From Olegusella massiliensis (lineage in GTDB: Bacteria; Actinomycetota; Coriobacteriia; Coriobacteriales; Atopobiaceae), in NCBI RefSeq assembly GCF_900078545.1, contig NZ_FLLS01000002.1, positions 372,001 through 436,000 on the forward strand: a stretch of DNA of 64,000 bases, written 5' to 3'. How positions within the stretch are numbered: the first letter of the stretch is position 1; each line of letters begins with the position of its first letter. Below are positions 9,811 to 29,891 of the stretch, piece after piece. Position numbers and translations under genes: made by a program. A model generated the notes under the pieces. It worked only from the letters and a program-made list of their open reading frames with translations, made no database searches and was not told the DNA's origin.

Positions 9811-9812
9811 AG

Positions 9813-10193
9813 CTATACCTTCCCCTCACCTGCAGTATCTTCGTCATAGGTATCTGCTGCTGCATAGAGAATGACACCTATAAGCACGACAAGTCCGCCA
9901 ATGAGCTTCAGAATACTCATATTCTCGTGAAAAATAAGGGCTCCCCAGATAAGACCCCATACTACAGTAACCGCCCTATTTGCATATGCAGTAATAAGAG
10001 GAAGATGTTTGATAATCTGTTGCCAACCAAGAGCATAGATGCCCAAAATGCCAATAATGCCGATATAACACAACATAAAAGAAGAACTGGGAAAGGCAAG
10101 ACCTGAGGCAACCTTACTCAGCACCGTGCTAAGAGAGTAAAACATCAATAGCAGTTGCAGCGAAAGATAAACCTTTATCTTAGATTTGGTCAT
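9813..10193 (-). CDS. small EamA/SMR-type membrane protein, probable flippase partner (ArnE/ArnF-like)
   Basis: This 126-residue protein has four predicted membrane helices and a short acidic tail. WGLIWGALIFHENMS in the third-to-fourth helix region is the standard EamA signature, and the HE(K/N)M motif is shared with its partner at 9454. The two lengths (126 and 118) are close to ArnF and ArnE. It starts four bases after the ATP-grasp stop, with GAAAGG ten bases upstream of the ATG. It probably forms a heterodimer with the next gene product in the cytoplasmic membrane. The direction and substrate of transport are inferred from the neighbours only. Confidence 0.75.
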   Translation of the reverse strand: MTKSKIKVYLSLQLLLMFYSLSTVLSKVASGLAFPSSSFMLCYIGIIGILGIYALGWQQIIKHLPLITAYANRAVTVVWGLIWGALIFHENMSILKLIGGLVVLIGVILYAAADTYDEDTAGEGKV

Positions 10194-10197
10194 CAGC

Positions 10198-11349: not shown

Positions 11350-11467
11350 CATACGAATACACGGATCCTTCCAACAAAATCTGCGAACACAGCACAGCAT
11401 CTTCCATGTCCATCATATGGAGTGACACTCATAGCAAAATCATCTATACACTACCCGGGAAGAATCT

Positions 11468-11485
11468 CCATAATTGTCATTATGG
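11468..11485. promoter_or_regulatory. inverted repeat in a divergent promoter region (possible operator)
   Basis: CCATAAT and ATTATGG form a perfect 7-base inverted repeat around TGTC. It lies in the 258-base non-coding stretch between the divergently transcribed ATP-grasp operon (start 11349) and the DUF616 gene (start 11608), where a dimeric regulator could act on both. No T-run follows, so it is not a terminator. No clear -35/-10 pair could be assigned beside it. Confidence 0.35.
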
Positions 11486-11607
11486 CAAAAAAGTATAGCC
11501 CATATCTCCTTCCAAGCTGTTTACCTTATCAGAGTGGAACTATGACATCATTAGGCTGCAACAAATGTAAACTAAACTGCAATACCACTTTTGCAATGGA
11601 GGATTAT

Positions 11608-12546
11608 ATGTATCGAAGCGAAGTTATACGTATGGTTGAAACTCTCAATCTACGCGCTATCGAGCTTCGTAATTCCGATATCTACGCTGCAGGTATTCGT
11701 GCCAAAAAAATTAATCAACTAATACATCCTTTAAATCCGAGTCATATTCACGATGGCTTTCAATCTTGGCTACGCTCGCGACGTTTTGCCCATGCACCTC
11801 GTCATGAAGAACAATCAAATCTAGACCCCATCGCATGGGAAAAAAGTTTATGCCCAGGCAGTGGAACAAAAAAAGTTGTTGTCTATTCTTGTATCACTGG
11901 TGGATACGACATCCCTCTAGAGCCTTTAATGGAAGTTCCTCAGCTTGACTATGTCATGTTTCTTTCCGCTACAGACACACTTGATTCAACAAAGTGGGAT
12001 ATTCGTCCCATTCCCACTGCAATTCAAAAATTGGGCAATAATACTCTTATAAATCGTTATATCAAACTTCATCCTCACGAACTTTTTGAGAATGACTATG
12101 ACGTTGCAATATATATCGACGGTAATGTTCAAGCAATTTCAGATTTAAGTTATTATGCGGATATCATTCATCCCCAAGCAGGCATTGCCTTACACTACCA
12201 TCGCACTCGCAGTTCTATTGCTGACGAAGTGATTGCTTGTAGTGCACTGGGCAAAGGAAGTCTCCCAAAGATGCAAGCTCAAGTTAATGCATATAGAGAA
12301 CGAGGTTTCCCCACAGATTATGGACTACTCGAATGCAATATCATCGCAGTTGACCTGCATAGTGACCTCAGCAAAAAACTTATAAGTGAATGGTGGAAAG
12401 AATACTGTTATTTTGATAGCGGTCGTGATCAGCTCGCTCTGCCTTATGTGTTGTGGAAAAACAACATCCCTATCGAACGTGTTGCCACGATGGGGTATAA
12501 CGCTTATCGCGATTCGAAGGTTTTTATCAAAAACCACGATGTTTAG
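11608..12546 (+). CDS. DUF616/TOD1-MUCI70-like putative glycosyltransferase
   Basis: This 312-residue soluble protein contains VVVYSCITGGYD near residue 90, the signature opening of DUF616 (PF04765), then IYIDGNVQ as the DxD-like element, and SGRDQLALPYVLW near the end. The family is glycosyltransferase-like and is found in surface polysaccharide clusters and in plant TOD1. The start is set by GGAGG at 11598-11602, five bases before the ATG at 11608; the frame stays open upstream to 11422 but that extension is not family-like and has no ribosome site. It heads a three-gene plus-strand unit with a GT4 and a flippase. Its donor sugar is unknown. Confidence 0.8.
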   Translation: MYRSEVIRMVETLNLRAIELRNSDIYAAGIRAKKINQLIHPLNPSHIHDGFQSWLRSRRFAHAPRHEEQSNLDPIAWEKSLCPGSGTKKVVVYSCITGGYDIPLEPLMEVPQLDYVMFLSATDTLDSTKWDIRPIPTAIQKLGNNTLINRYIKLHPHELFENDYDVAIYIDGNVQAISDLSYYADIIHPQAGIALHYHRTRSSIADEVIACSALGKGSLPKMQAQVNAYRERGFPTDYGLLECNIIAVDLHSDLSKKLISEWWKEYCYFDSGRDQLALPYVLWKNNIPIERVATMGYNAYRDSKVFIKNHDV

Positions 12547-12560
12547 AACGGGATTATCTG

Positions 12561-13670
12561 GTGAAGAAAGTACTAATGGTCTCTTGTGAAGGCCTAGGTA
12601 ATGGCGGAGTACAAGCAGTGATGATGGGTATTGTGCGAGAGCTCAAGCCATACTGCCACTTTGACATGCTACTTTTTACATCAGAGCGCCGTTATTATGA
12701 CGATGAATTTGAGTCAATTGGCAATATATTTCGCATCCCCCACTATGAAGGATCAAATCCTCTTTGCCTTTATTCCGACTATTACCTACGAGGGCGTCAG
12801 CTATACAAGAAAGCCAAAGTGATTTTAAAAGAGCAAGGACCTTATGACGTTATTCATTGCAATAATAACTTTGAAGGAGCTTTATGTCTCAAAGCTGCTG
12901 CTGAAGTCGGTGTGCCTGTACGTGTAATCCAGGCACATGTTGAACTCTCTCTTAGAGACGAGAATATTCTTCGTAGAAGCATCGATCTCAAAAGGCAAGC
13001 GCTTATTCGCCAGTATGCAACCGCATTATTAGGTTGCTCAAAGGCTGTTTGTGATAGTTTATATGGCTCAGATGCACCTTTCTGTGTCATTCCAAATGCC
13101 TATGATGATCAACGTTTCAACAAGAAAATATATCCACCTCATGACGGTTATCTAAACCTCATTCAAATTGGTAGATTTATTGAAAATAAAAATCAATTAT
13201 TCAGTGTGTCTGTTCTCAAGCATATTCATGAATACATTCCAGATGCTCGGCTTAACCTTGTAGGTTTTGGTGATGAGTCCGAATTAACTCGCTTGCGTCA
13301 GACAATTGATGAAGCAGGGCTTAAAGATTTTATTCAGCTACACCCGAGCGATGCAAATACCCCTGAATTACTTAGCAATAGCTCATCTTTACTTTTACCT
13401 TCTCAACATGAGGGTTTTGGTATTGTACTTGTGGAAGCTCAGGCAATGGGCGTCAAATGTTATGTCTCTGACACGGTACCCCAAGATGCCAACGTAGGTG
13501 GTTGTGTCTATCTATCTTTGCAAGACGGCGCTGCGGCATGGGCAAAACGCATAGTAGATGACTATAGGCATGGTCTATGTAAACATAGTAACTATGACTG
13601 CACACAATTTAAGTCATCTACGATTATGAAGAAAATCAAAGATATCTATTTTTCTCATATAAGCTGCTAA
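12561..13670 (+). CDS. GT4 family glycosyltransferase
   Basis: This 369-residue GT-B enzyme has the GLGNGGVQAVM loop near the N-terminus, IQIGRFIENKNQ at the start of the C-terminal Rossmann domain (about residue 195), and LLPSQHEGFGIVLVEAQAMG with the E-x7-E donor-binding motif near 285-295. It starts with GTG at 12561, 14 bases after the DUF616 stop, so the two are co-transcribed. GT4 enzymes of this type use nucleotide sugars with retention of configuration in the cytoplasm. It probably adds an inner sugar to the repeat unit that the Wzx-like protein downstream exports. Confidence 0.9.
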   Translation: MKKVLMVSCEGLGNGGVQAVMMGIVRELKPYCHFDMLLFTSERRYYDDEFESIGNIFRIPHYEGSNPLCLYSDYYLRGRQLYKKAKVILKEQGPYDVIHCNNNFEGALCLKAAAEVGVPVRVIQAHVELSLRDENILRRSIDLKRQALIRQYATALLGCSKAVCDSLYGSDAPFCVIPNAYDDQRFNKKIYPPHDGYLNLIQIGRFIENKNQLFSVSVLKHIHEYIPDARLNLVGFGDESELTRLRQTIDEAGLKDFIQLHPSDANTPELLSNSSSLLLPSQHEGFGIVLVEAQAMGVKCYVSDTVPQDANVGGCVYLSLQDGAAAWAKRIVDDYRHGLCKHSNYDCTQFKSSTIMKKIKDIYFSHISC

Positions 13671-13719
13671 GTATATGGGTGCATGTTTTTTTAGCTAGAT
13701 TACACGAAGAAGGACTTAT

Positions 13720-15249
13720 ATGGCAGACTCGTCTAGGCAAAGGGAAATCGGGGCACTTGTTTCCTATGCAGATACCTTTGTCGCAATGGTGGTTGGTCTT
13801 TTATATGTTCCTTTACTCCTGCGCACCATCGGTCAAGCTGAATATGGTCTCTATCAGCTCATTGGTTCAATTATTGCCTACCTCAATATCATCAGTTCAA
13901 TGCTTGCAGCTGGTGTAACTCGCTACTACTGCAAATTTTTTGCTCTTGGCGATACGGAAGGTATGGCAAAAACACTCGGTATATCCAAGAAAATCTATAG
14001 CGTCGCAAATGTTGTCGTTGTGATTGCAGCTACTATTCTTATTTTTATGGTTCGTACTATCTATGCAGCATCTTTGTCTGCATGGGAACTTAATGAAAGC
14101 AGCGTCATTATTGGTCTGCTTGCTTTTAATCTGATGTTGACCATGAACAACACTCTCAGCATTGCAGTCATCACAGCTCACGAACATTTTGTTTTTCTTA
14201 AACTGTCAAACCTTACTTTAACTGCGCTTCAACCAATTACCGTATTGATAGTAGTTCAGGCAATGCCTTATGCAGTAGCAGTGAGTGCCGCACAGGTTGC
14301 TCTTAATGCCCTACTAAGATTTGTACAGCGAAGTTATGCTATCAAGAAGCTTGGTATGGATACCTCTATTCGTGAATATGATCGAGATCTTGAGCGTGAA
14401 CTTATGCGCTTTTCAGGTAACATCGTACTCAGCACTATTGCAGACCAGATTTTTTGGAAAACCGATCAACTTATTTTGGGTTACCTTTATGGCACCTCAA
14501 TTGTGGCTATTTATTCCGTTGGTATGACTATTAATACGATTTATTTATCGCTTGGTATGGCTGTATCTTCGGTTTTTATGCCACAAGTAAGCGAACTTTG
14601 GCATAAGGATAAAAACATTCATGCCATATCAGACCTTTTTATTCGCGTAGCACGTATTGCTCTTTATCCTCTACTTCTTGTTCTGCTTGGTTTTATAGTC
14701 TTTGGCAAAGAATTCATTTCGCTTTGGGCAGGTCCTAATTATGTTGAAGCTTATTTGATTGCAATTGTTGTCATGGTGCCTTTTACTGTTGATCTCATGC
14801 AAAATATTGGATTGACCATTCTTCAGGTAATTAATAAATATGGATTTAGAAGCATAATTTACCTTACTGCGGCAACGCTTAATATCATCCTCACTCTTGT
14901 TCTTGCTCAAAGCTTTGGTGGCATAGGAGCGGCCATTTCCAGCAGTATCGCCATCATCATTAGTAGTGGAATTATCCTCAACTGGTATTACCAAACAAAA
15001 ATTCATTTAAATATGGGGGCTTTCTGGTCAAGTATTATTCATGAAACTGCACCTCTTATTATCTATGCAAGTATCATGTTTTTCGCTTGGTCACAATATA
15101 AAGCAACCATCCAAGACATTGGGTGGATCCCACTTATCCTTGGCATTTTACTATTCAGTTTTGGCTTTTTAGTCGTGGCCTACTTTTTCTCATTTAATAG
15201 CTCTGAGAAAAATCTTATCGCCCATCTCATCCACTTCAGTAAAAAATAA
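13720..15249 (+). CDS. Wzx/PST-type polysaccharide flippase
   Basis: This 509-residue protein has about 14 hydrophobic segments. The opening has LLLRTIGQAEYGLYQLIGS, the classical first-loop signature of oligosaccharide flippases of the MATE/PST group (PF01943/PF13440), and a FWKTDQLILGYLYGT stretch follows in the middle. AAGGA seven bases before the ATG gives a clear start. It follows the GT4 gene by 49 bases and ends the plus-strand unit, converging on the TupA-like gene four bases away. It is expected to flip an undecaprenyl-linked oligosaccharide. A Wzy-type polymerase is not obvious in the window, though one of the polytopic proteins could serve. Confidence 0.88.
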   Translation: MADSSRQREIGALVSYADTFVAMVVGLLYVPLLLRTIGQAEYGLYQLIGSIIAYLNIISSMLAAGVTRYYCKFFALGDTEGMAKTLGISKKIYSVANVVVVIAATILIFMVRTIYAASLSAWELNESSVIIGLLAFNLMLTMNNTLSIAVITAHEHFVFLKLSNLTLTALQPITVLIVVQAMPYAVAVSAAQVALNALLRFVQRSYAIKKLGMDTSIREYDRDLERELMRFSGNIVLSTIADQIFWKTDQLILGYLYGTSIVAIYSVGMTINTIYLSLGMAVSSVFMPQVSELWHKDKNIHAISDLFIRVARIALYPLLLVLLGFIVFGKEFISLWAGPNYVEAYLIAIVVMVPFTVDLMQNIGLTILQVINKYGFRSIIYLTAATLNIILTLVLAQSFGGIGAAISSSIAIIISSGIILNWYYQTKIHLNMGAFWSSIIHETAPLIIYASIMFFAWSQYKATIQDIGWIPLILGILLFSFGFLVVAYFFSFNSSEKNLIAHLIHFSKK

Positions 15250-15253
15250 TCAT

Positions 15254-16171
15254 TTAACCAATCTCAAGCAGCTTCGCATACTCATCAGCGTACTCAGCGG
15301 GATAAAACTGGTTGTAGCCTGCACCGTGATAGAGCGTAATTTCACTAAAGTAGAACTGTTGGCCCATGTCATAAAAATCGACACGGACATACTTAAAATT
15401 CTTTGCAATCTCCGTACCAATGCGAAGCATTTCATCAAGACATTGTGGGCGCGGCTCAACGATGGGTTTGGTAATTTTTTTGTACTTTGCTTTGGAAGTG
15501 AACTGAAACGGCAGCAGCTGCCAATCAGGTGTAAAGAAAGCGCGGTAGTTATCACCCTCGCGGTCGATAACTTTATATACAAAGGCACATTTCCCATTGA
15601 AGAAATGCAGTTTAATATCGGCGGGCACCCGCCCCTCAGAATCCATAAGAAGCTTTTCGATAAGCAAGCAAGGCTGAATATTTTTGTATTGCCATTCACG
15701 CGTTTCATAGTAATGGTTGAGCGTCATCCACGCATGACAACGACCCCTCAAGCGTTTGTAATCTACTTTATTGCGATCTCGAACAATTTTCCAAGTGCCC
15801 GCACCGCTATTGCATTTAATGATCGTGGGATAGTCTGGAAAAACTTCTTTGGTGACTTCCTTCCAAGAATTGAGCTTTCTTACCAGTGGGACTAGATGCT
15901 CTTCACCAAAATGCTCAGCAATATAACTTCTCACACGATATTTATCCGCCACCATCGTACAAAAATCGCGGTGATCATGGAGCTTGAGCCAGCACATCTT
16001 TTCATTGAGTGTCTGCGGATCATCAAGATTAGGGACATACCCCAGTACCTGCGCAAAAATCTTCTCCTCAAGCTTGCGCTCGCCCATAAGCTGCAGGGGA
16101 AGCTTAAATTTCAAAGTAAAGTACAACCAACGAACGGGATAGGCCTCTTTTAGCTTATCGACAAAGTTCAT
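15254..16171 (-). CDS. TupA-like ATP-grasp protein
   Basis: This 305-residue protein belongs to the ATPgrasp_TupA family (PF14305): DPQTLNEKMCWLKLHD near residue 50, ADKYRVRSYI near 75, PTIIKCNSGAGTW near 115, and VRVDFYDMGQQFYFSEIT near the end with the acidic metal ligands. TupA was named from teichuronopeptide synthesis in alkaliphilic Bacillus, where an amino-acid polymer is joined to polyglucuronate. Such proteins are widespread in capsule clusters and probably ligate a carboxylate to an amine. It lies 40 bases downstream of the UDP-glucuronate 4-epimerase gene on the same strand, which fits a role on a uronic-acid-containing polymer. The exact substrate is unknown. Confidence 0.82.
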   Translation of the reverse strand: MNFVDKLKEAYPVRWLYFTLKFKLPLQLMGERKLEEKIFAQVLGYVPNLDDPQTLNEKMCWLKLHDHRDFCTMVADKYRVRSYIAEHFGEEHLVPLVRKLNSWKEVTKEVFPDYPTIIKCNSGAGTWKIVRDRNKVDYKRLRGRCHAWMTLNHYYETREWQYKNIQPCLLIEKLLMDSEGRVPADIKLHFFNGKCAFVYKVIDREGDNYRAFFTPDWQLLPFQFTSKAKYKKITKPIVEPRPQCLDEMLRIGTEIAKNFKYVRVDFYDMGQQFYFSEITLYHGAGYNQFYPAEYADEYAKLLEIG

Positions 16172-16211
16172 ATGCTTCCCTCTTTCGAATTTTTATTCAA
16201 GTTCGCAGGAC

Positions 16212-17291
16212 CTAGTTGAGATAAAAATCGCGATACCACTCGGCAAAAGCTCGCAGACCCTCACGCAGAGTTGTCTCAGGTCTATAGCCAAACTCGCGCT
16301 CCAGCGCTTCGGTATCTGCATATGTCACGGGTACGTCTCCGGGCTGCATGGCGACGAGCTCTTTATGTGCCTCAAAATCAAAATCCTGAGGCAACACGTC
16401 TGCACGCACCAATTCTTCTTGCAGGGTGCTCACAAAATCAAGCAAACTCTCGGGACGACCACCACCAATGTTGTATATGGCATAGGGAGGCACGGGCAGT
16501 CCGTCTATACCTGTTTTGCGCTCAGGAGCGCGGACAAAAACCCGTACAATACCCTCGATAATATCGTCGATATAGGTAAAGTCACGGCTGCAATTCCCAT
16601 AGTTAAAAATTTTTATAGTTTCACCCTGTAAAAGCTTATTTGTAAAACCAAAATATGCCATATCAGGACGCCCCGCCGGACCATAAACCGTAAAGAAGCG
16701 CAGTCCCGTCGAGGGAATGTCATAGAGCTTGGAATAGGCATGTGCCATCAATTCGTCAGATTTTTTGGTAGCTGCATAGAGCGAAACAGGATTATCGACA
16801 TGGTCATCGGTGCTAAAGGGGACCTTGCTATTACCTCCGTACACCGATGAGGACGAAGCGTAAACCAGGTGTTCCACACCACGCGCTCCCCCATCATAAC
16901 TATGTCGACAGGCCTCAAGGATGTTATAAAAACCAATAAGATTTGACTCAATATAGGAGTCGGGATTTGTAATGCTATAACGCACACCTGCCTGCGCCGC
17001 AAGATTCATCACGATGTTGGGCTGATAGCGCCCAAAAAGGGAATCAACTAAAGCTTTATCAGCAATCGAGCCTCGAATAAAGTCCCAAGAAACCTGAGGA
17101 TTTGCTTTTGCATACTCACCAATCTTTGCGAGGCGCCAATCCTTAAGCGAAACATCGTAGTAGTCGTTCATATTGTCAATACCAACAACATTACAGCCCA
17201 ATCCCAGCAAACGTTCTGAAAGATTCGATCCGATAAAACCTGCAGCGCCCGTTACCAGTACTGTCTTGCCTTGCAAGTTCATATCACTCAT
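16212..17291 (-). CDS. UDP-glucuronate 4-epimerase-like NAD-dependent epimerase
   Basis: This 359-residue SDR-extended enzyme has GAAGFIG at 15-21 for NAD binding, the GIDNMNDYYD signature at 38-47 typical of UDP-GlcA 4-epimerases, catalytic SSS at 146-149 and YAATK with Tyr172 and Lys176. It should interconvert UDP-glucuronate and UDP-galacturonate in the cytoplasm. The UDP-GlcA would come from the Ugd-like enzyme at 47924-49144. GGAG precedes the ATG at 17291 by five to six bases. It is divergent from the CapA gene; the 133-base gap must hold promoters for both. UDP-GlcNAcA epimerase is an alternative within the family. Confidence 0.87.
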   Translation of the reverse strand: MSDMNLQGKTVLVTGAAGFIGSNLSERLLGLGCNVVGIDNMNDYYDVSLKDWRLAKIGEYAKANPQVSWDFIRGSIADKALVDSLFGRYQPNIVMNLAAQAGVRYSITNPDSYIESNLIGFYNILEACRHSYDGGARGVEHLVYASSSSVYGGNSKVPFSTDDHVDNPVSLYAATKKSDELMAHAYSKLYDIPSTGLRFFTVYGPAGRPDMAYFGFTNKLLQGETIKIFNYGNCSRDFTYIDDIIEGIVRVFVRAPERKTGIDGLPVPPYAIYNIGGGRPESLLDFVSTLQEELVRADVLPQDFDFEAHKELVAMQPGDVPVTYADTEALEREFGYRPETTLREGLRAFAEWYRDFYLN

Positions 17292-19787: not shown

Positions 19788-21848
19788 TTAATCTGTTAGT
19801 GCATCAATTTTGTACAATCTCATATCACCTTCGTCGAGAACTACTTTAAACCCCGGTGTTTCATTAGTAAGCGATACAAAACCTTGCCAATCTCTACTAT
19901 GAAACTTATCAAAGAGACTTGATTTAGCATACTTGGCATCAAAATTTTTATCTAAAAGCAGAAGGTACTGTGCACCTGTTGTTTTTACTGCGTTTTGCAC
20001 TTCACGATTACTCGCATACTCATTAATCTTGTTTGAAATAAGTTCACTCTCAGGAGTATTTCCTCCTCCAAATTGACGATAATAGGTATTGATATCACTC
20101 AAGGGATAAGCGAAGGCACTACCATCACCAGGTACATTCAGTACAAGATTATCCCCGGTAATACTTTTAACCTTAACAAGAAAATCACGCTCATCTTGAT
20201 CCAAAATTGAGTAGGAAATAGCATTAAATGTATATGCTCGGTTTCTTGTATATCCAAATGCAGTCGAAAGAGTGACATCCTCATACGGGATTGTGATATT
20301 GGGATAAAAAATCATTACAAACGAAACCACTAAAAATATACAAGGTATTAGGAAGCATTTAAAATGGCCTTGCACATCATGAACAGCGAGCTGCCCAAAC
20401 AAATACTGAGCTACTCGCACCATTGACTCCATACCAAGTGCTGCAAGAGGCATCGCCAAAATACAAGCAATAGACGCAAGACGATTCCAGTCGGTATACC
20501 AAAATCCCGTCATATACTGCTTGAAGGAACCATCAAGAGAAGCTGAAATAATAAAGAGCGTGCAAAAAAGAAAGAAGCTTCCACTTATCCAAAGATACTT
20601 TCTACGGTAAAAACTATACAGGACTCCAAGCCATACAAACAAAGCAAGTACAGGCTGGGCAGGCACATCTTTGAAGCCCAAAAATAAAGCTTCTATGGCC
20701 GTAGCGCGAACGGGAGCATAGGCATAATGTATATACTGGGCTACAGAATTAACTAAGGGAATTTCGTAGCAAACTTGCCATGCTACCATGACGAAAAATA
20801 GGAATACCCCAACTGCTACAAATGCACCAAGCCAAGAATTGTGTCTCATATTATTTGTGCATCCACGCCATATTACCCATATGAGATAAGGAATAAGGGC
20901 AACTCCTAAAGTAAAAGCCATGCTTGGATGCGCAAAAACAAGAGCGAGCAATCCAATGACAAATATAGTAATCTTTCCAAACTCATATTTTTTTTGAAGG
21001 GCATCCTCAAACACCATAATGCATACTGCAAGAAATGCTGGAAGCAAAACCATGCCAAAGAAAAACGCATTCTTCGCCTGAGGGATAAGGATGTGCCACG
21101 GAAACACTCCAAAGGCAAGTGGAAGAAGAGCTCCTAAGCGCAAGGCAAGTGTCTTTTCCTTAAGTGTAGTACGCAAAAATAAATATATTCCTGCAGTAAA
21201 ACAAGGTACAAGCAAAATGGTATTTATGACATTGGCACCAAAAGCTGCATTTTGTTTTGTGAAACCCGTAATCATTGCCGCGAGCACATGCCATGCCGCT
21301 GGATAATAAGGCTTTCCCATAATGGATGCATGGGATACATCCTCAAATAAAGAGGAACTAAAAATTGACCACTCCCCTGACTTCACATAACGCCATACCA
21401 GATTTAGGTGCACGGAATTGTCTGTCTTCCAAGTAAAAGATGCCGGCCCATCCAAAGGTCGTATGTAGTAAAACACGCACACAACAAGCGCAATTACAAG
21501 GTAGGGAGCAAAGATTTTGAGCTCTTCTATAAAGCCGATCGACACAGAGCGACTTGCGGCATGATGAGAAACGCTTATCGATTTCTGTTGTGTATGTCGC
21601 AGGTATACACCACCTATATAAATAAGTAGAGAAACGATAATGGAGGGAAGAGCAACGCTTGCCCATGAGGCAAATACACCGAGCCTGACAAAAATGATGC
21701 CCAGCAAGGTATATATCGTTGTTGTAATAAGGGGTGCAAATGCAAAACAAAAGAAGGGGTCATAATTACATGCCCTTGCAAAAAGGTAACCTGGTAAGCA
21801 AACAAATATAAAGCATACCGGCAACGCAAGTAAAAACTGAAGCCACAT
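19788..21848 (-). CDS. DUF6541-type polytopic membrane protein (GT-C-like)
   Basis: This 686-residue protein has about 14 membrane spans and a soluble C-terminal part of about 140 residues. LPGYLFARA in the first loop, the PLDGPASFTWKTDNSVHLNLVW extracellular segment (DNSVH-type acidic/His loop), and YYPAAWHVLAA are features of the DUF6541 family, which is common in Coriobacteriia, Bifidobacterium and relatives and resembles GT-C glycosyltransferases. AGGGGG seven to eight bases before the ATG at 21848 sets the start. A strong terminator separates it from the upstream lectin gene, so it needs its own promoter or depends on read-through. Possible role: attaching a lipid-linked sugar outside the membrane (inference). 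Confidence 0.72.
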   Translation of the reverse strand: MWLQFLLALPVCFIFVCLPGYLFARACNYDPFFCFAFAPLITTTIYTLLGIIFVRLGVFASWASVALPSIIVSLLIYIGGVYLRHTQQKSISVSHHAASRSVSIGFIEELKIFAPYLVIALVVCVFYYIRPLDGPASFTWKTDNSVHLNLVWRYVKSGEWSIFSSSLFEDVSHASIMGKPYYPAAWHVLAAMITGFTKQNAAFGANVINTILLVPCFTAGIYLFLRTTLKEKTLALRLGALLPLAFGVFPWHILIPQAKNAFFFGMVLLPAFLAVCIMVFEDALQKKYEFGKITIFVIGLLALVFAHPSMAFTLGVALIPYLIWVIWRGCTNNMRHNSWLGAFVAVGVFLFFVMVAWQVCYEIPLVNSVAQYIHYAYAPVRATAIEALFLGFKDVPAQPVLALFVWLGVLYSFYRRKYLWISGSFFLFCTLFIISASLDGSFKQYMTGFWYTDWNRLASIACILAMPLAALGMESMVRVAQYLFGQLAVHDVQGHFKCFLIPCIFLVVSFVMIFYPNITIPYEDVTLSTAFGYTRNRAYTFNAISYSILDQDERDFLVKVKSITGDNLVLNVPGDGSAFAYPLSDINTYYRQFGGGNTPESELISNKINEYASNREVQNAVKTTGAQYLLLLDKNFDAKYAKSSLFDKFHSRDWQGFVSLTNETPGFKVVLDEGDMRLYKIDALTD

Positions 21849-21873
21849 ATGCACGCCCCCTATCACTTAATCC

Positions 21874-21930: not shown

Positions 21931-24576
21931 CTAGTAGGACAGAGCTGTAGTCCCACGAGAAATATTATCGAATATCCACTTGGCATTTCCAATTTCAAGA
22001 CGGCAGCAAGCACCAGATTGACGAGCGCCAAGCCTATTTACATAAGGGTACAGTGTATGCGTTTTCGCATAATAAAGCCGTGAATGGAAAATCAGTCCAT
22101 TGGGGAAATAGGTCCAGTAGTACTCACCGGTCTCATACACAATGCCATTTGGTCCGATATCTCCGTAATAATCCTTTCTGCCTGTACTTCTAAACAGGCC
22201 TTTGGGCGTAGGAGATCCAGGCTTGCCAACAGCACATAGGAAACTCTTATGAGGCGCCCACGTACCATTCTCAAGGTGGTATACATTGACGTAAAAACGG
22301 CTCTGATCAAGAGCAATAAGGTATTTGGTACCACTCGATAGATTATTAATTCTACGATAGCTAGCGTAAGTAGTATATTGCCACCTGCTCCTCTTGCCCC
22401 GCTCATTGACATATACATAGTTGCCGTTACTCAAATCCCAGTGGCTTGTATCTTGGAACGTCCACTTCTGGGCTGCTGTATTGTTGCTTTCCCATTGATG
22501 AATATTAGCCCCATCCCTCTTGGAGGCGCCCGCAATATCCATCATTAAACCGGATCCAAGATTCCTAAAGCTAATCCAGCCACCGTCAGCAATTTCAGCT
22601 TTCCACATTTGGGCAGGAGTAGCGTTGCTTTTGTATTGGTTAACGTTGGCGCCATTAGCTCCAGAGCCGTGATATACATCGACCATCTTGTCAGAGTTGA
22701 CATTCTTGAGAGTAATGCAGCCATTACCTACATTGGTAATTTGGAATTTTTGACTATCATAGTTTTTGAATCTACCAGCAGTGATATTACCACCGTTGCG
22801 ATTGTCAGTACGACCAGCACCCAATACGGTACCAAGCTGAGAAACAACCTTATAGGTGCCATTGGCAATGAGCTGAGCGGCATCAAAGATAAAGTTTTGA
22901 GATGCGGATCCATTCGCAGCAGCCAAAGAGAGTGTGCTGCCATCGCCTGTCATGTTCAAAGCCTTGTTGGTATCAGCGGCATGGTAAAGCGAAAGCTGAG
23001 TACCATTCCAACCAATAACCCATTGATTGTTTCCATCAGCCACAGTAGAACTGCTGCCATTTTGAATAATACGACCACTTACAGGATCGTACGTTACCCA
23101 GCCGCCCGAAGAGGCGGTACGAATGCGATAGAGACCCTCATTTGCTTCAATGAGTTTCACCTCAAAACGCTGGGCACGGGTGCCATTAGAATTATACATT
23201 CTTACCATTGCGCCAGATTTATTTGACCCACTCTGGACATCAAGAACTTTATGAGGATTCAAGAGATTGCTAATCGTATAAATACCCTCATCAAGAAGAG
23301 ATACTTTATCTAAACTAAAGTTTTGTGCAGCAGAATTATTTGCCACAAAGCCTTGAAGGTTGGTGCCACTACGTGCAAGACCGCCACTAATATCCAACAC
23401 AAGACCCGTAGCCTTATTGACAAGGCAGCAACTACCATCAGTATTACCGCGTAGTGCCCACTTTTGATTGTCTTGCCCTCTCTTGGTATCTTGGTACACG
23501 TTAGATCCGGCAACCACACTGTTCTTCATAGTGAGAACCTTGCCACTACCCAACAAATTAAGATAATAGTAGCCCTCACCTGCCGTCTGGAGATATATCT
23601 TTTGAGCCTGATCACCAGATACCCGACGCGCGAGCTGAGCATTTGCTCCATTTGATTTGGAAGAGCCTTTAATGCCAACCAAACAGCTAGAATTAGCTGT
23701 AGCCTTGATAAGATATGCACCGTTCTTCTTATCAACATCGCTCGGAGCTACTTCAGGATGTGCTTTATAGAAATAAAAGCGCTGCGCCAGCGTATCATTT
23801 GATTTATAGAGCCAAATATTTGACTCATTTTCAACCTTACCACCATAGACATCAAGTACTTGCCCCTCATTAAGCTTAGAGACGATAGAATAAGCGCCAT
23901 TGGCAAGTCTCTTTAAGAACCAGAGTTGAGCATCAGAATCTACCTGCTCTTGGCAAATCTCAATATTGTTTTTTTCTTGTGTGTTAACCTGTAACATCAA
24001 CTTAGTACCATGTTTGGCAATGGAGTAATATCCGTCACCCTTGTAGGTCAAATCCCATTGCTGAGCTTCAGAATTATTATTCTCGTAAATCTGAACATTT
24101 GCATGGTCATGCTCTTTGTTATGCCAAACATCAATAACCTTGGAAAGGCCCTTGTAATTTCCTGAACCAATAACATAGGTGCCATTGGCAAGTGGTTGAG
24201 ATTGAGGAGTCTCACGGCGCGCGGTTGCCATGTGACGTGGAGCCGTAATCTCTTCTTCGTTGGGCTCCGTTGGAGTAACTACACTAGCTTCAGGATTCTT
24301 TTGTTCCTCTACAGAAACTTCCTCTTCCTTCTTATCCTCCGAAGAGTTTTGGGCTTGGTCTTCTCCGCCCATAGGAGAATCTGCATTGAGATCTGCAGGT
24401 CCATTTGTATCAGGAGCTGCAGCCGTCATTGCTCCTTCGTTTGGAGCGCTTGCAACAATAGGCGATACCTCAGAACTGCCTTCACCATCTGCCGCAAAAG
24501 CAACAACAGGTGCAGTGGCACCCAAAGCAAAGGCAAGGCCGCAGACTACGATGGAATTCTTTAGACTTGTATGCAT
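21931..24576 (-). CDS. secreted ricin-type lectin repeat protein with C-terminal L,D-transpeptidase domain
   Basis: This is an 881-residue protein. Residues 1-28 are a signal peptide (basic start, hydrophobic core, cleavage near AFA). Residues 29-130 are an acidic, Pro/Ala-rich linker. Residues about 131-710 hold twelve repeats of about 48 residues with the pattern G.Y.I...VLDV.G....GANV..Y.SN..AQ.W, equal to four ricin-B beta-trefoils. Residues about 750-881 form a YkuD-type L,D-transpeptidase (TPKGLF, FHS with His831, and a SGACCR catalytic motif with Cys857), which cross-links or anchors on peptidoglycan. The start at 24576 has AGAGGAT upstream. Downstream is a strong terminator. Its place inside a wall-polymer locus suggests that the lectin part binds the polymer made here. 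Confidence 0.9.
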   Translation of the reverse strand: MHTSLKNSIVVCGLAFALGATAPVVAFAADGEGSSEVSPIVASAPNEGAMTAAAPDTNGPADLNADSPMGGEDQAQNSSEDKKEEEVSVEEQKNPEASVVTPTEPNEEEITAPRHMATARRETPQSQPLANGTYVIGSGNYKGLSKVIDVWHNKEHDHANVQIYENNNSEAQQWDLTYKGDGYYSIAKHGTKLMLQVNTQEKNNIEICQEQVDSDAQLWFLKRLANGAYSIVSKLNEGQVLDVYGGKVENESNIWLYKSNDTLAQRFYFYKAHPEVAPSDVDKKNGAYLIKATANSSCLVGIKGSSKSNGANAQLARRVSGDQAQKIYLQTAGEGYYYLNLLGSGKVLTMKNSVVAGSNVYQDTKRGQDNQKWALRGNTDGSCCLVNKATGLVLDISGGLARSGTNLQGFVANNSAAQNFSLDKVSLLDEGIYTISNLLNPHKVLDVQSGSNKSGAMVRMYNSNGTRAQRFEVKLIEANEGLYRIRTASSGGWVTYDPVSGRIIQNGSSSTVADGNNQWVIGWNGTQLSLYHAADTNKALNMTGDGSTLSLAAANGSASQNFIFDAAQLIANGTYKVVSQLGTVLGAGRTDNRNGGNITAGRFKNYDSQKFQITNVGNGCITLKNVNSDKMVDVYHGSGANGANVNQYKSNATPAQMWKAEIADGGWISFRNLGSGLMMDIAGASKRDGANIHQWESNNTAAQKWTFQDTSHWDLSNGNYVYVNERGKRSRWQYTTYASYRRINNLSSGTKYLIALDQSRFYVNVYHLENGTWAPHKSFLCAVGKPGSPTPKGLFRSTGRKDYYGDIGPNGIVYETGEYYWTYFPNGLIFHSRLYYAKTHTLYPYVNRLGARQSGACCRLEIGNAKWIFDNISRGTTALSY

Positions 24577-24694: not shown

Positions 24695-26851
24695 TCAGTA
24701 GCCACGTGCCTTGATAAATTGATAGGTACGTGCACGATTTTCTTTATCGCGATAGGCATACCACTGTGCAGCTTTTTGCAAATCGACATCAAGGGCCACA
24801 CAGTCATTTTCAAGCACGGAAGTAATTATTTCGACTGTTTCATCTACCGTTGTACCTACAGGACCGGGCAGATCACAAGCAAAATCAATATAACTTCCCA
24901 CATATTCTAGAAACTCTGTCTGATCAAATTGATAAAACACAACGGGCTTATTTTGATACAGTACATCCCAACACACACTAGAGTAGTCGGTCACCAACAA
25001 AGAACACTCCATGATTAGTTCATTGAGCGGGCGTTCCCCCAAAGGTATCAATTGGACACGCGGATTATCCGTATGGAATGCCTCAATAAATTCATTAATC
25101 TTGGGATGGATAAAAAGTTGGAGCGTCGCATCATACATCTCAAGAAGCCCCGTCAACTTTTTATTGGTCAGCAACGCCTGATATGCCTTGTAATAGTCAC
25201 TCTGAACAAAGACATTCATACTCTGTTCTTCAAGCCAGGGACGCCAAGTGGGCATGACAAGAATAGAGGGACGCGCTTTATTGGCGCGATTTTCCAAAGT
25301 ATCCCAACGCGAAAGTCCTAAAACAGCAACTTGATGATCAGCATAACCAAAATGATCAACAATAATCTTTTTTTCTGCCTGTGATGAAGTCAAAAAATAC
25401 GTGATAGAGCTGGCACTATCTGCACCAAATCCTTGGTCAACACGCTTCAAGGCGATAACGCCATGCTGCAAAAAGAGCATGTCATGTTTACGAATACACG
25501 ATTGGACGATATTGGGCTTGGGGCGCCACTGATAAAGATGAGCACTAGAGTCTGAGCCCACATATAGCTTTGCAATTAGGGCGTAAAAAAGATGCTTAAA
25601 ACTCATAAAGCTAATAATATGTCGACCATATTGCTTTACCTTGTCATAAGCGGGAGCATTTTTGTCGATGACATAATAAATATCCTTTTTTTCTTCTGCA
25701 GAAAGTTCTTCCATACAGTAACGAAAAAAATGATAACCATTATCCTCAGCAAGCTCACAAAACTTCTCATACACCAACCAAATGTGCCGATCTTTGTAAA
25801 AAGAACCAAACATCTGCGCACATATACGCGCTGCTATCCCATAAAGACGTGTTAGTAACGAATCATATGGTGAAGCAGGACGCACCGCAAAGGCAAGTCG
25901 ATAAGCTAACAATGTGGGATAAGGGAAGAGCAACAAACCGTTATCAAGCGAAATTGAATCCCCCCATATCGCAAGTCTTTTTATGAGCGCTCTAGAACAC
26001 TTCACAAATGTTTTGACCGTTTTGCCATCTTGCTCAAGGTTAATAAGCAGGTCCCAGTAAATCTCACGAAACTCAAAGGCATTCGTATCAAAGCATGTAC
26101 TGAGATAAATCCAGTCCCCTTGTTCGTAAACAGTTGTATCAAGTACAAAAGAGACAGGCTCGGACACACTGCGATAGATAAGTTCAAGAGCTTTCGCTCG
26201 GTAATTACCTTTACGTAACTTGACTTTAAGAGTTACATAACCGTTACGTTTACACCGAGCGACGTCAGCAATTCCTGAGACAAAACGAGAAAGCAACTCA
26301 TCAGACCAACACACCACAACGGAAAGCAATGAAGTGTTGTTGGCAACATACGCTGCAATTGTCGGGAAATTACCAGCAGTTTTTTGATGAAAAACCAGAG
26401 TATGGGGAGGTATACAATTTGCCGGCAAGGCAACAGGATCAAAATGCACAATTATTTTGTCATCTTGAATGGGATGAGATGACTGAAGCTTAAAGCTCTG
26501 ATAACACACAGGAGCATCAGCTGCAGGTGAAAAAAGAGTAAACAACGCGCGTGGCACATGGTTCTCGCAAAGATGGATACCTATCTCTGCCAGGTCAACT
26601 ACAAGCTGCTGATTAAGCAGCTCTTCTTGGGTAACCAATCGTGCCCACAGTATTTTTTTCTTCTGAGTAAGTACAATCCAAGAAGATGCGGAAAGTATCG
26701 CTCCTTTTGGGAGTTTAATTGTGAGAATTTTTCCCTTTTGCTCAATTGCGACAAAAATAGGTTGAGCCGTAATTCCTTCTAGGCTTTGTTCAATAAAGCG
26801 ATAACCGCCTGTCGTATCCACGCCACCCATTGCTTCTTCACTCATGCTCAT
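24695..26851 (-). CDS. CDP-glycerol glycerophosphotransferase (TagF-like) with N-terminal extension
   Basis: The C-terminal half (about 330-715) is a Glyphos_transf domain (PF04464): FLQHGVIALKRV, LVMPTWRPWLEE, LFIHPKINEF and LLVTDYSSVCWDVLYQ, with the His and Asp residues used by TagF to add glycerol-phosphate from CDP-glycerol. The first 330 residues are a beta-rich region seen in larger teichoic-acid polymerases. The ATG at 26851 lies one base after the stop of tagD, so the two form a unit in which TagD supplies the substrate. It acts on the cytoplasmic membrane face. Whether it is a polymerase or adds a single unit cannot be read. Confidence 0.88.
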   Translation of the reverse strand: MSMSEEAMGGVDTTGGYRFIEQSLEGITAQPIFVAIEQKGKILTIKLPKGAILSASSWIVLTQKKKILWARLVTQEELLNQQLVVDLAEIGIHLCENHVPRALFTLFSPAADAPVCYQSFKLQSSHPIQDDKIIVHFDPVALPANCIPPHTLVFHQKTAGNFPTIAAYVANNTSLLSVVVCWSDELLSRFVSGIADVARCKRNGYVTLKVKLRKGNYRAKALELIYRSVSEPVSFVLDTTVYEQGDWIYLSTCFDTNAFEFREIYWDLLINLEQDGKTVKTFVKCSRALIKRLAIWGDSISLDNGLLLFPYPTLLAYRLAFAVRPASPYDSLLTRLYGIAARICAQMFGSFYKDRHIWLVYEKFCELAEDNGYHFFRYCMEELSAEEKKDIYYVIDKNAPAYDKVKQYGRHIISFMSFKHLFYALIAKLYVGSDSSAHLYQWRPKPNIVQSCIRKHDMLFLQHGVIALKRVDQGFGADSASSITYFLTSSQAEKKIIVDHFGYADHQVAVLGLSRWDTLENRANKARPSILVMPTWRPWLEEQSMNVFVQSDYYKAYQALLTNKKLTGLLEMYDATLQLFIHPKINEFIEAFHTDNPRVQLIPLGERPLNELIMECSLLVTDYSSVCWDVLYQNKPVVFYQFDQTEFLEYVGSYIDFACDLPGPVGTTVDETVEIITSVLENDCVALDVDLQKAAQWYAYRDKENRARTYQFIKARGY

Positions 26852-26852
26852 C

Positions 26853-27278
26853 TTATTTCTGAAGTCGTCCTTTTACATCAGTAGTAGAAATTCCCGGCGT
26901 ACGATCAAGATATACAACATCGCAGCATTTTTTGAGATACTCAAAGCGATTAGAACCCGCCCAATCACCACCCATAACAACGGTGTCAATGTGATAGTCC
27001 TTCACATCACTCAGTTTTTGTTCCCAGTTTTTCTCAGGAATAACAAGGTCAACATAGCGGATAGCTTCAAGCATTTCTTTGCGGGTCTCGTAATCATAAA
27101 ACGATGTCTTGCCCTTGCTCTGGTTGAATTCATCAGTAGAAAGGGCAACTACAAGATAATCCCCAAGTGCCGCAGCGCGACGCAAAAGACGAATGTGTCC
27201 ATAGTGAAGGAGATCAAAAGTTCCATAAGTCAATACACGCTTGAGTCCGGTATATTCCCCGTTTCCTTCAAAATACGG
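26853..27278 (-). CDS. tagD: glycerol-3-phosphate cytidylyltransferase
   Basis: This 141-residue nucleotidyltransferase has LTYGTFDLLHYGH (HxGH motif at 26-29), a middle KxxxFxxYExR segment in which the Lys is part of GKTSFYDYETRKE, and the final RTPGISTTDVKGRL motif, which holds the RTxGISTT signature of TagD/GCT enzymes. It makes CDP-glycerol from CTP and glycerol-3-phosphate. The start at 27278 follows AAGGAGAG; an upstream in-frame codon at 27308 adds 10 residues. It is divergent from the second glycerophosphotransferase gene at 27406 and co-directional with the TagF-like gene that follows one base later. Confidence 0.95.
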   Translation of the reverse strand, partial: PYFEGNGEYTGLKRVLTYGTFDLLHYGHIRLLRRAAALGDYLVVALSTDEFNQSKGKTSFYDYETRKEMLEAIRYVDLVIPEKNWEQKLSDVKDYHIDTVVMGGDWAGSNRFEYLKKCCDVVYLDRTPGISTTDVKGRLQK

Positions 27279-27365
27279 CATGAGAGCAACTCTCCTTGTC
27301 ATAGACAATCAAATCAATGCAAATATTCTACCACCCATTTCCACCTGCTTTATTTGTTCGCCTAT

Positions 27366-27375
27366 ACTTATAAGT
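27366..27375. promoter_or_regulatory. short palindrome between divergent tagD and tagF-like genes
   Basis: ACTTATAAGT is a perfect 10-base palindrome in the 127-base gap between tagD (start 27278, minus) and the glycerophosphotransferase (start 27406, plus). It overlaps TATAAG, which could be a -10 element for the plus-strand gene, although no good -35 was found. It may be an operator or simply AT-rich chance. Confidence 0.22.
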
Positions 27376-27405
27376 ACTATGGATATTTCTCCTAAAGGGA
27401 CTGAC

Positions 27406-28722
27406 GTGAATACACCACATATAAAGCTAAATCAGCTCATACGCACAGTAGGCAAAGCAATTCTACGTTACTTCCCCAGTACTCGTCAGTGGTCTCGTGC
27501 ACGATGGTGGGCACATGAACGCCGGAGGTATGAGCGCCTTACAGCACATATCGCAACAGATTCCAAGGTGGTTGTCTTTAGCTGTTTTATGGGTCGATCT
27601 TTTGCCGACTCCCCTCGTGCTATATATGAGGCAATGTGTGCCAACAGCTACTTTGATGATTATGAGCTGTGGTGGATTTTCCGTGAGGACAAACTCGAAC
27701 AATTTCAAAATGATCCGCGCCTTTCTCGTGCTCATTTTGTCGAACGTAGTACTGAGGACTACCTCCGTATTCTAGCCCGTGCTCAATACTGGATTTTTAA
27801 TGCACGTTGTCCTGAGTATGTACTGCCCAAACCCGACCAAGTTTATGTACAGTGCTGGCATGGCACACCCCTAAAAAGATTAGGTTTTGATGTACAAGTA
27901 AATACAACTAATGCACTCAATACCACACTTGAACTTGCTAATCGTTTCAAAATTGATTCAGCAAAGTGGAGTTATCTTATCTCACCATCGCCCTTTACCT
28001 CTAAGCATCTCAGCGATGCTTTTGGGCTTGAACCAGAACGTCGTTCCTCTACGGTGCTTGAAGTGGGCTACCCCCGCAATGATCGCATTGCGCGTGCGTG
28101 TAAGACCCCCGATAGTCTTACGCACGCCAAAGCAGCCATTATGGATGAACTTAACATCCCTCAAAACAAGAAACTCTTACTCTATGCACCTACATGGCGA
28201 GATAACGATTACAAAGCAGGTATCGGGTATGTCCAGGATACCCTCATTGATTTTAATCTTTTGCAGCGGCAGCTCAGTGACGAGTGGTGCATCCTTTTCC
28301 GCCCACATTATTACATTGCAAATGAGTTTGATTTTGCCAAATATGACAGCTTTGTATATAACGCTGCCGCTGTTGCTGATATCAATGACCTATATATTGT
28401 GGCAGACGCACTAATGACTGATTATTCTTCGGTTTTTTTTGACTACGCTGTTACTCAACGTCCTCTCATTTTCTACTGGCCAGACTTTGAGTTTTATGAT
28501 GATCACGTGCGTGGTTTTTACTTTGATCCCCACACGATTCCTGGTCCTAAATGCAGTACGGGAGAAGAGGTTATCCAGGCAATACAACAACTTGATACAT
28601 GGCAGGAAAACTATGGGGAGGCATATCAGAAGTTCCGCAAATACTTTTTACCTAAAGATGATGGATATGCATCTCAACGAGCAATCGCCCATATCTTTAA
28701 CATGCCTATAGAATCAAAGTAG
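27406..28722 (+). CDS. CDP-glycerol glycerophosphotransferase (TagF/TagB family)
   Basis: This 438-residue Glyphos_transf protein has VYVQCWHGTPLKRLGFD, LLYAPTWRDNDY, LFRPHYYIAN and LMTDYSSVFFDYAVTQRPLIFYWPD, all of the family's catalytic and nucleotide-binding motifs. A GTG at 27406 preceded by AAGGGA with seven-base spacing is the best start; an ATG at 27379 adds nine residues without a ribosome site. It is nine bases upstream of the TagB-like gene. Together with tagD this indicates synthesis of a glycerol-phosphate chain or glycerol-phosphate branches on the polymer. Confidence 0.88.
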   Translation: MNTPHIKLNQLIRTVGKAILRYFPSTRQWSRARWWAHERRRYERLTAHIATDSKVVVFSCFMGRSFADSPRAIYEAMCANSYFDDYELWWIFREDKLEQFQNDPRLSRAHFVERSTEDYLRILARAQYWIFNARCPEYVLPKPDQVYVQCWHGTPLKRLGFDVQVNTTNALNTTLELANRFKIDSAKWSYLISPSPFTSKHLSDAFGLEPERRSSTVLEVGYPRNDRIARACKTPDSLTHAKAAIMDELNIPQNKKLLLYAPTWRDNDYKAGIGYVQDTLIDFNLLQRQLSDEWCILFRPHYYIANEFDFAKYDSFVYNAAAVADINDLYIVADALMTDYSSVFFDYAVTQRPLIFYWPDFEFYDDHVRGFYFDPHTIPGPKCSTGEEVIQAIQQLDTWQENYGEAYQKFRKYFLPKDDGYASQRAIAHIFNMPIESK

Positions 28723-28730
28723 GTCGATTT

Positions 28731-29891
28731 ATGCTATTCGTACTCGGTATAGGTCTTCGTCTACTTTCTGTGTTTTTTAGTCTCTTTCCACTCAAGCGAC
28801 GTGTAGCTTTTTTATCGCGACAAGGTAAAGTCCCTTCTGTTGATTTTTGCATGCTTGCAAGCTGTCTACAAAAAAATGATCCTGAGCTATCTATTGTTAT
28901 TCGCACAAGCAAACCCGAACAGCATGGCTTGGGGCAACTGATACGTCACATGACTTCCCAGCTTTGGTATGCAAGAACATCTAAGGTGGTTGTCCTTGAT
29001 GGCTATAACCCCACCGTTTGTATACCTCATAAACGAAAAGGCGTATTTGTTATACAGTTATGGCATGCCGTAGGCGCTATCAAAAAGTTTGGCTTTCAGA
29101 GCATTGACACAGCTGCGGGTCGTTCCTCCTCATACGCAAGACTTGCTCACATGCATCAAAACTATGATCTCATTATCTCCGCTGGTCCCGGAGGCAATGC
29201 TGCATATGAAGAGGCATTTTTCTATCCTAAAGATTATGTAGTAGCTCTTGGTCTCCCCCGCATTGACCGTCTTCTTACAGGGCCAAGTCAAGCTGAACTT
29301 AAAACCAAATTTGTCGCTGATTATCCCTGGCTCAATAACGGCAATATGAATGTTTTATACGCCCCCACCCTGCGCCCCTCGCACACCAAAGATGACTGGC
29401 AAGAGACTGCTATCAATAGTCTCTCTACTGCATTGGTTGAACTTCCCATTAATCTCATTGTGTCAAAGCATCCCCTGACCACACTCAACAATCCTGACAG
29501 ACTTCCTGCCAACGTATTTGTATTGCCTGGTCACAGCACTGAGGAATTACTTCGTTTAGCAGACGTAGTAATAACCGATTACTCAGCTATCGCTCTGGAA
29601 GCTGGCCTTATAGGAAGTACGGTACTTTTCTTTATGCCAGATTATGAGGAGTATTCTTACTCTCCCGGTCTCAATATTGATCCTCTGCACAACCCACAAC
29701 TGTTTGGCGCAATTCATGCCGAAGACATCGCCACAGCTCTGCATAACCGTGAGTATTTGGCGCGCGTTCAAAAAAATTACTCCGCTTTTACTCAATCCTA
29801 CTTCGAAGGGATAACACCAGGTTCAACTGAACGTATTGCCCAGCTTATTTATGAACATATCGACGAGACATACAAGTCCAAAACAAGATAG
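28731..29891 (+). CDS. CDP-glycerol glycerophosphotransferase (TagB-like)
   Basis: This 386-residue paralogue is of TagB length. A hydrophobic N-terminus (about residues 1-18) may dip into the membrane, followed by FVIQLWHAVGAIKKFG, VLYAPTLRPSHTKDD, VSKHPL and VITDYSAIALEAGLIG. TagB-type enzymes add the first glycerol-phosphate to a lipid-linked primer. AGGTCG lies just before the ATG. It follows the 438-residue paralogue by eight bases. TagB rather than TagF identity is inferred from length and the N-terminal hydrophobic segment only. Confidence 0.85.
   Translation: MLFVLGIGLRLLSVFFSLFPLKRRVAFLSRQGKVPSVDFCMLASCLQKNDPELSIVIRTSKPEQHGLGQLIRHMTSQLWYARTSKVVVLDGYNPTVCIPHKRKGVFVIQLWHAVGAIKKFGFQSIDTAAGRSSSYARLAHMHQNYDLIISAGPGGNAAYEEAFFYPKDYVVALGLPRIDRLLTGPSQAELKTKFVADYPWLNNGNMNVLYAPTLRPSHTKDDWQETAINSLSTALVELPINLIVSKHPLTTLNNPDRLPANVFVLPGHSTEELLRLADVVITDYSAIALEAGLIGSTVLFFMPDYEEYSYSPGLNIDPLHNPQLFGAIHAEDIATALHNREYLARVQKNYSAFTQSYFEGITPGSTERIAQLIYEHIDETYKSKTR

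What the first reader, a model, noticed from the sequence alone, without database searches (positions are those of the whole stretch)
21931..24576. Twelve ricin-type repeats fused to an L,D-transpeptidase inside a wall-polymer locus
Seen: a signal peptide, acidic linker, twelve repeats of about 48 residues (four beta-trefoils) and a C-terminal YkuD domain. Known: L,D-transpeptidases act on peptidoglycan stems; ricin domains bind sugars. Inference: the protein may recognise the polymer made by the neighbouring genes and fix it, or itself, to peptidoglycan.
Basis: partly seen in the sequence, partly recalled or inferred. Interest (0 to 1): 0.65.

Follow-up and report, generated by a model that had tools for sequence, protein, structure and literature searches.

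The report
Lectin-footed wall cross-linking enzyme
An oral bacterium related to Atopobium makes a secreted cell-wall enzyme (an L,D-transpeptidase) on a foot of four lectin domains; in relatives the same enzyme stands on other known wall-binding feet, so the lectins are probably a wall anchor that recognises the bacterium's own surface polymer.

Summary
Window 21931-24576 (-) encodes 881 residues: signal peptide, acidic linker, twelve ricin QxW/QxF/QxI repeats (four confidently modelled beta-trefoils) and a C-terminal YkuD domain with the catalytic His, Cys and Arg intact. It sits between a poly(glycerophosphate) transferase gene and a DUF6541 gene in a wall-polymer locus. All ricin repeats found in the 1.8-Mb genome lie within 43 kb there, in five proteins; three of the others carry peptidoglycan-hydrolase-type domains (NlpC/P60, ELLD/Amidase_5, GH25).

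In relatives of the same family the same YkuD subfamily is joined instead to choline-binding, ChW, CWB2, DUF5648 or Bsp-like modules. Ricin-rich genomes almost lack choline-binding repeats (within-genus permutation p=0.002). GH25 muramidases show the same alternation. Ricin-bearing transpeptidase genes lie within 25 kb of DUF6541 in 18 of 25 cases (0.6 expected).

Best reading: the ricin array is a non-covalent wall anchor, working like choline-binding or CWB2 modules, that holds a peptidoglycan L,D-transpeptidase on the cell's own wall polymer. Distant Clostridia carry similar genes away from such loci. I found no open-access paper on lectin-footed L,D-transpeptidases.

The parts
21931..24576 (-). 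Ricin-array L,D-transpeptidase gene, 881 aa
24490..24576 (-). Signal peptide, residues 1-29 (VVAFA/ADGEG), cleavage site inferred by eye
24196..24489 (-). Acidic disordered linker, residues 30-127
23761..24186 (-). Beta-trefoil 1 (repeats 1-3; pockets intact in 1 and 3)
23299..23727 (-). Beta-trefoil 2 (repeats 4-6; pocket intact in 6)
22876..23292 (-). Beta-trefoil 3 (repeats 7-9; pocket intact in 7)
22447..22866 (-). Beta-trefoil 4 (repeats 10-12; pockets intact in 11 and 12)
21934..22359 (-). YkuD L,D-transpeptidase domain, residues 740-881 (His831, Cys857, Arg859)
24695..26851 (-). Glyphos_transf (PF04464) gene immediately upstream, same strand
19788..21866 (-). DUF6541 (PF20176) membrane protein gene immediately downstream, same strand
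26853..27308 (-). Cytidylyltransferase, TagD-like
27241..29891 (+). Two further Glyphos_transf genes
8318..17291 (.). Polymer genes: DegT aminotransferase, ATP-grasp, glycosyltransferases, flippase, TupA-like ATP-grasp, epimerase
47924..49144 (+). UDP-glucose/GDP-mannose dehydrogenase family
57541..59203 (-). ABC transporter pair (ATPase and ABC2 membrane protein), candidate polymer exporter

Best explanation
A secreted peptidoglycan L,D-transpeptidase that is held on the wall by a non-covalent lectin foot. After export, four beta-trefoils with about six working pockets bind repeated sugars of the cell's own surface polymer (the teichoic-acid-like polymer encoded around it), and the C-terminal YkuD domain makes stem cross-links or exchanges in the peptidoglycan beneath. 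The ricin array is this lineage's version of a swappable wall-anchor module: relatives put the same catalytic domain on choline-binding, ChW or CWB2 modules, and neighbouring autolysin-like enzymes in the same locus carry the same kind of ricin foot. Shown: architecture, fold, intact catalytic residues, locus linkage, module exchange, genome-wide alternation of anchor types. Inferred: that the ligand is the locus's polymer, that the pockets bind sugar, that the enzyme is active, and that its product is peptidoglycan cross-links.
For: Fold and motifs. His831, Cys857 and Arg859 invariant in all 65 sequences aligned. Same YkuD subfamily joined to choline-binding repeats (L028, L033, L098, L099), ChW (L090, L116, L120, L067, L065), CWB2 (L087), DUF5648 (L029, L127) and Bsp-like repeats (L031, L172). 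At least 13 module changes on the catalytic-domain tree, ricin alone at least 4 on well-supported branches. In G000 all ricin hits lie in C2:353833-396576; GH25, NlpC/P60 and ELLD/Amidase_5 proteins there carry arrays too. Ricin-rich genomes nearly lack choline-binding repeats (13 of 16 have none; within-genus permutation p=0.0022; 1 of 37 genomes has at least 10 hits of both). GH25 pairs with ricin in ricin-rich genomes and with choline repeats in choline-rich genomes of one genus. 18 of 25 ricin-LDT genes within 25 kb of DUF6541, 0.6 expected. Pocket residues of the six intact repeats 21/24 identical to the nearest relative against 366/556 background, p=0.018. Known anchors that work this way: PMC5137146 (choline-binding proteins on teichoic acid), PMC10335673 (GW modules on galactosylated teichoic acid).
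Against: No binding or activity measured. Six of twelve pockets are degenerate. The SHGC motif reads SGAC here. Clostridia carry ricin+YkuD genes without an evident polymer locus. LDTs with other modules are also near DUF6541 (19 of 53 within 25 kb), so linkage alone does not point to the ricin part. LicD, a possible choline marker, does not separate ricin from choline genomes cleanly.
Confidence: 0.64

Rival explanations
1. The enzyme covalently joins the polymer, or a polymer-bound protein, to peptidoglycan. The polymer or partner offers a primary amine to the YkuD acyl-enzyme.
For: YkuD enzymes do attach proteins to peptidoglycan in Gram-negatives (PMC12274547; PMC8263019 describes removal of such links; abstracts seen). 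The locus holds TupA-like and other ATP-grasp genes that could add amino acids to a polymer, plus a sugar aminotransferase.
Against: No evidence of an amine-bearing polymer. Wall polymers are normally attached by LCP phosphotransferases (own knowledge). Relatives carry the same domain on many unrelated anchors, which suits a general peptidoglycan role.
Confidence: 0.08
2. The ricin array is an adhesin or nutrient-binding lectin for host or food glycans, with the LDT domain serving to fix the lectin to the cell's own peptidoglycan.
For: Ricin repeats commonly bind galactose-type sugars (own knowledge); host-associated genomes; no LPXTG or membrane anchor.
Against: Such arrays also sit on three hydrolase-type proteins in this locus and alternate with wall-binding modules, which favours a wall ligand.
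Confidence: 0.13
3. The enzyme is secreted against competitors: the array targets other species' wall glycans and the catalytic domain damages or alters their walls.
For: Several ricin-armed hydrolase-type proteins are encoded together.
Against: No immunity gene or release system recognised beside them. A transpeptidase is a poor weapon. Linkage is to the cell's own polymer genes.
Confidence: 0.05
4. The YkuD domain is a dead enzyme or a hydrolase, and the protein acts only as a wall-bound structural lectin.
For: SHGC is replaced by SGAC, and the glycine before the cysteine, kept in 62 of 65 sequences, is alanine here.
Against: His831, Ser832, Cys857 and Arg859 are kept, and the His of SHGC varies widely in this subfamily (39 of 65 have it). 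The nearest relative, at 65% identity, keeps the same SGAC motif.
Confidence: 0.1

Closest known systems
YkuD-family L,D-transpeptidases (LdtMt2, B. subtilis YkuD, Ldtfm, E. coli LdtD)
   Same: Fold, catalytic Cys/His and following Arg
   Different: Known accessory parts listed in the 2025 review are membrane helices, lipid anchors, LysM, PG4 and an endolysin-type domain (PMC12729407); a lectin array is not among them. SHGC motif changed to SGAC.
Choline-binding proteins of Streptococcus pneumoniae (LytA, CbpL)
   Same: Repeat array holds wall enzymes non-covalently on a wall polymer; a set of enzymes shares one kind of foot (PMC5137146)
   Different: Ricin trefoils instead of choline-binding solenoid; ligand unknown; here alternates with choline-binding repeats between relatives
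GW-module autolysins of Listeria (LygA)
   Same: Repeat modules hold a wall enzyme on galactosylated wall teichoic acid, with affinity depending on repeat number (PMC10335673)
   Different: Different repeat fold and catalytic domain
CWB2-anchored wall proteins
   Same: In a relative (L087) the same YkuD subfamily carries CWB2 in the slot of the ricin array
   Different: Different fold; ligand of CWB2 is an anionic wall polymer (own knowledge)
Mosquitocidal holotoxin (2vse) and HA33
   Same: Same multi-trefoil ricin fold
   Different: Only a fold resemblance; the catalytic domain here is a wall enzyme, not a toxin domain

Membership tests
YkuD L,D-transpeptidase | Pfam YkuD over gathering score | tested here: met
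   38.7 bits against 23.4
YkuD L,D-transpeptidase | YkuD fold | tested here: met
   Model pLDDT 89; matches 4xxt, LdtMt1, LdtMt2, YkuD at E 1e-7 to 1e-10
YkuD L,D-transpeptidase | Catalytic Cys, His and following Arg | tested here: met
   Cys857, His831, Arg859 invariant in 65 sequences
YkuD L,D-transpeptidase | Full [S/T]HGC motif | tested here: not met
   Reads SGAC; the His position varies within the subfamily (39 of 65 have it), the Gly position rarely (62 of 65). Because the motif is not strict in this subfamily I keep the family name on fold, profile and catalytic residues.
YkuD L,D-transpeptidase | Transpeptidase activity | not testable with these tools
   Needs biochemistry
Ricin B-type lectin | QxW repeats in threes forming beta-trefoils | tested here: met
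   Twelve repeats, four trefoils
Ricin B-type lectin | Asp/aromatic/Asn/Gln pocket | tested here: met
   Complete in repeats 1, 3, 6, 7, 11, 12
Ricin B-type lectin | Sugar binding | not testable with these tools
   Needs a binding assay
Choline-binding-type wall anchor (works like) | Repeat module shared by a set of wall enzymes in one genome | tested here: met
   LDT, GH25, NlpC/P60 and ELLD/Amidase_5 proteins in one locus
Choline-binding-type wall anchor (works like) | Interchangeable with known wall-binding modules on the same catalytic domain | tested here: met
Choline-binding-type wall anchor (works like) | Ligand is the cell's wall polymer | not testable with these tools
   Linkage and alternation only
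Choline-binding protein (member of) | Choline-binding repeats | tested here: not met
   No Choline_bind_3 match in G000; the array is ricin-type

The most novel reading that the evidence does not exclude
The enzyme uses its lectin array to hold the wall polymer and transfers peptidoglycan stems onto amines of that polymer, so that an L,D-transpeptidase, not an LCP ligase, ties a wall polymer to peptidoglycan.
Probability: 0.05. Interest if true: 0.88.

Novelty: new variant of a known kind. Interest (0 to 1): 0.55.

Why it matters
It adds a lectin foot to the known accessory parts of L,D-transpeptidases. It also shows, within one bacterial family, the same wall enzymes standing on ricin, choline-binding, ChW or CWB2 feet, with anchor type tending to be a genome-wide property. 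If the anchor follows the polymer, the repeat type becomes a readable proxy for the chemistry of wall polymers in these oral, gut and rumen Actinobacteria, which as far as I know are little characterised, and the arrays become reagents for those polymers.

Tried and rejected
Chance repeats or an ORF artefact: rejected. LicD as a marker separating choline from ricin genomes: not clean (8 of 16 ricin-rich genomes have LicD). Plasmid relatives: only partial ricin matches, no full-length one. Literature on ricin with YkuD or L,D-transpeptidase: nothing relevant; the library is open-access only. My first classifier of N-terminal modules missed some choline-binding LDTs and left out genes hidden by opposite-strand ORFs, so the 'other' class on the tree mixes several modules and the change count is a lower bound. 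Sequence sharing between arrays within a genome as a sign of co-adaptation: not pursued; the LDT protein is 65% identical to its ortholog but only about 33% to other array proteins of its own genome.

Full report
OBSERVATION. The gene runs 24576 to 21931 on the minus strand (881 aa; an upstream GTG at 24612 is possible but the ATG has a ribosome site). Pfam finds ricin repeats (E=3.6e-64) and YkuD (38.7 bits, cut-off 23.4). Twelve Q-x-[WFI] repeat motifs lie 42-60 residues apart, mean 48. The AlphaFold2 model, made from ten homologues read from fetched loci, shows twelve consecutive ricin repeats at pLDDT mostly 80-94, after a disordered linker. Foldseek ranks the four-ricin-domain holotoxin 2vse first and aligns one trefoil to ThreeFoil at 1.0 A. 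The YkuD domain, modelled with 65 sequences, has pLDDT 89 and matches solved L,D-transpeptidases.

CATALYTIC SITE. His831, Cys857 and Arg859 are invariant in 65 sequences and Ser832 is Ser or Thr. The usual SHGC reads SGAC; the His of that motif is present in only 39 of 65 subfamily members, so its loss is common, while Gly to Ala before the Cys is rare. The nearest relative keeps the same motif. I take the enzyme as probably active; this is inference.

SUGAR POCKETS. Taking Asp, aromatic (Q-8), Asn (Q-5) and Gln as the pocket, six of twelve repeats are complete (1, 3, 6, 7, 11, 12), with at least one in each trefoil. Their pocket residues are 21/24 identical in the nearest relative against 366/556 for the rest of the array (p=0.018).

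LOCUS. Neighbours are three CDP-glycerol:poly(glycerophosphate) transferase family genes, a TagD-like cytidylyltransferase, a flippase, many glycosyltransferases, a UDP-sugar dehydrogenase, DegT, TupA-like and other ATP-grasp genes, an acyltransferase and an ABC export pair; ruvABC lies to the right of it. The gene lies on the same strand as, and close between, a Glyphos_transf gene and DUF6541. The nearest named relative, Atopobium sp. oral taxon 810 F0209, has the same order. In this genome all PF14200 matches lie in C2:353833-396576, and in the relative in C6:9657-49243. They belong to five proteins: the LDT, an 863-aa ELLD/Amidase_5 protein, an 871-aa NlpC/P60 protein, a 1116-aa GH25 protein and a 1046-aa protein near a sortase gene, with one trefoil.

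RELATIVES. Among 140 genomes of the family, a profile of this YkuD subfamily finds matches in 110 (the weakest of these are ordinary LDTs). I fetched the genes and read their other domains. The catalytic domain is joined to ricin arrays, choline-binding repeats, ChW repeats, CWB2, DUF5648 or Bsp-like repeats (the Bsp-like example L172 is from a Clostridium relative, L031 from the family). On the tree of the catalytic domain the module label changes at least 13 times, and ricin changes at least 4 times on well-supported branches. In genus g31 ricin LDTs (G077, G078) sit beside a choline-type LDT (G081) on the tree; in genus g35 ricin, choline and CWB2 LDTs all occur.

GENOME-WIDE ALTERNATION. 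Sixteen genomes are ricin-rich (at least 18 PF14200 hits); thirteen of these have no Choline_bind_3 hit, the others 1, 2 and 9. Shuffling choline counts within genera gives as few in 0.2% of trials; among 37 genomes strong in either, one has at least 10 hits of both. The threshold was chosen after seeing the counts, and the LDT's own repeats contribute. GH25 muramidases behave alike: ricin-GH25 in ricin-rich genomes (G000, G031, G019, G021, G037, G041, G047, G077, G133, G135), choline-GH25 in G123, G127 and G128. Not every GH25 protein carries either module.

LINKAGE. Of 25 ricin-LDT genes, 18 lie within 25 kb of DUF6541 (14 within 10 kb), in 13 of 15 genomes; 0.6 would be expected at random positions. 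LDTs with other modules are also near it, less often (3 of 12 choline, 16 of 41 other). Outside the family, Clostridia carry ricin+YkuD genes beside ordinary metabolic genes (L177: a symporter, GH25-DUF5648, GH77); annotation there was partial.

INTERPRETATION. A module that replaces, and is replaced by, known wall-binding modules on the same enzymes, that is shared by the wall enzymes of one locus, and that is linked to polymer genes is best read as a wall anchor. Choline-binding proteins and GW autolysins show how such anchors work on teichoic acids (PMC5137146, PMC10335673). The 2025 review of L,D-transpeptidases lists LysM, PG4 and endolysin-type domains as binding parts, not lectins (PMC12729407). 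What sugar is bound, whether the enzyme is active and what it links remain open. Covalent fixing of the polymer is possible but has no direct support.

LIMITS. Some LDT genes were missed or labelled 'other'. Related genomes are not independent, and the linkage count treats them as such. No experiment was possible.

Noticed in passing
L052:5303-6266 and 8508-9471 (G000:C2, left of the window): A 964-bp stretch at 98.5% identity is present twice: the NlpC/P60 end of the 871-aa ricin protein plus a 116-aa ORF, with a DUF6020 gene between the copies; the relative G031 has one copy in the stretch read. It looks like a recent partial duplication that could reshuffle the hydrolase domain.
   Followed up: partly
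L233:2254-5394 (G000:C2:351253-354393): A 1046-aa protein with one ricin trefoil and a Listeria-Bacteroides repeat, near a sortase gene (L052:4370-5149).
   Followed up: partly
window 15254-16171, 17425-18579 and 18564-19787: TupA-like ATP-grasp, PGA_cap and FrhB-like genes are 81-95% identical in the relative, more than the LDT (63%); the polymer may carry amino-acid groups.
   Followed up: no
L090:1049-3286 (G034, same genus): The same YkuD subfamily carries ChW repeats instead of ricin in a member of the same genus that has no ricin or DUF6541 match.
   Followed up: partly
L169, L170, L174, L176, L180: Clostridia and Eggerthellaceae genomes hold tandem clusters of two or three ricin-array genes, some with YkuD.
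   Followed up: partly
window 42339-44270 and 52448-54274: Two large proteins of 643 and 608 aa without any Pfam match inside the polymer locus.
   Followed up: no
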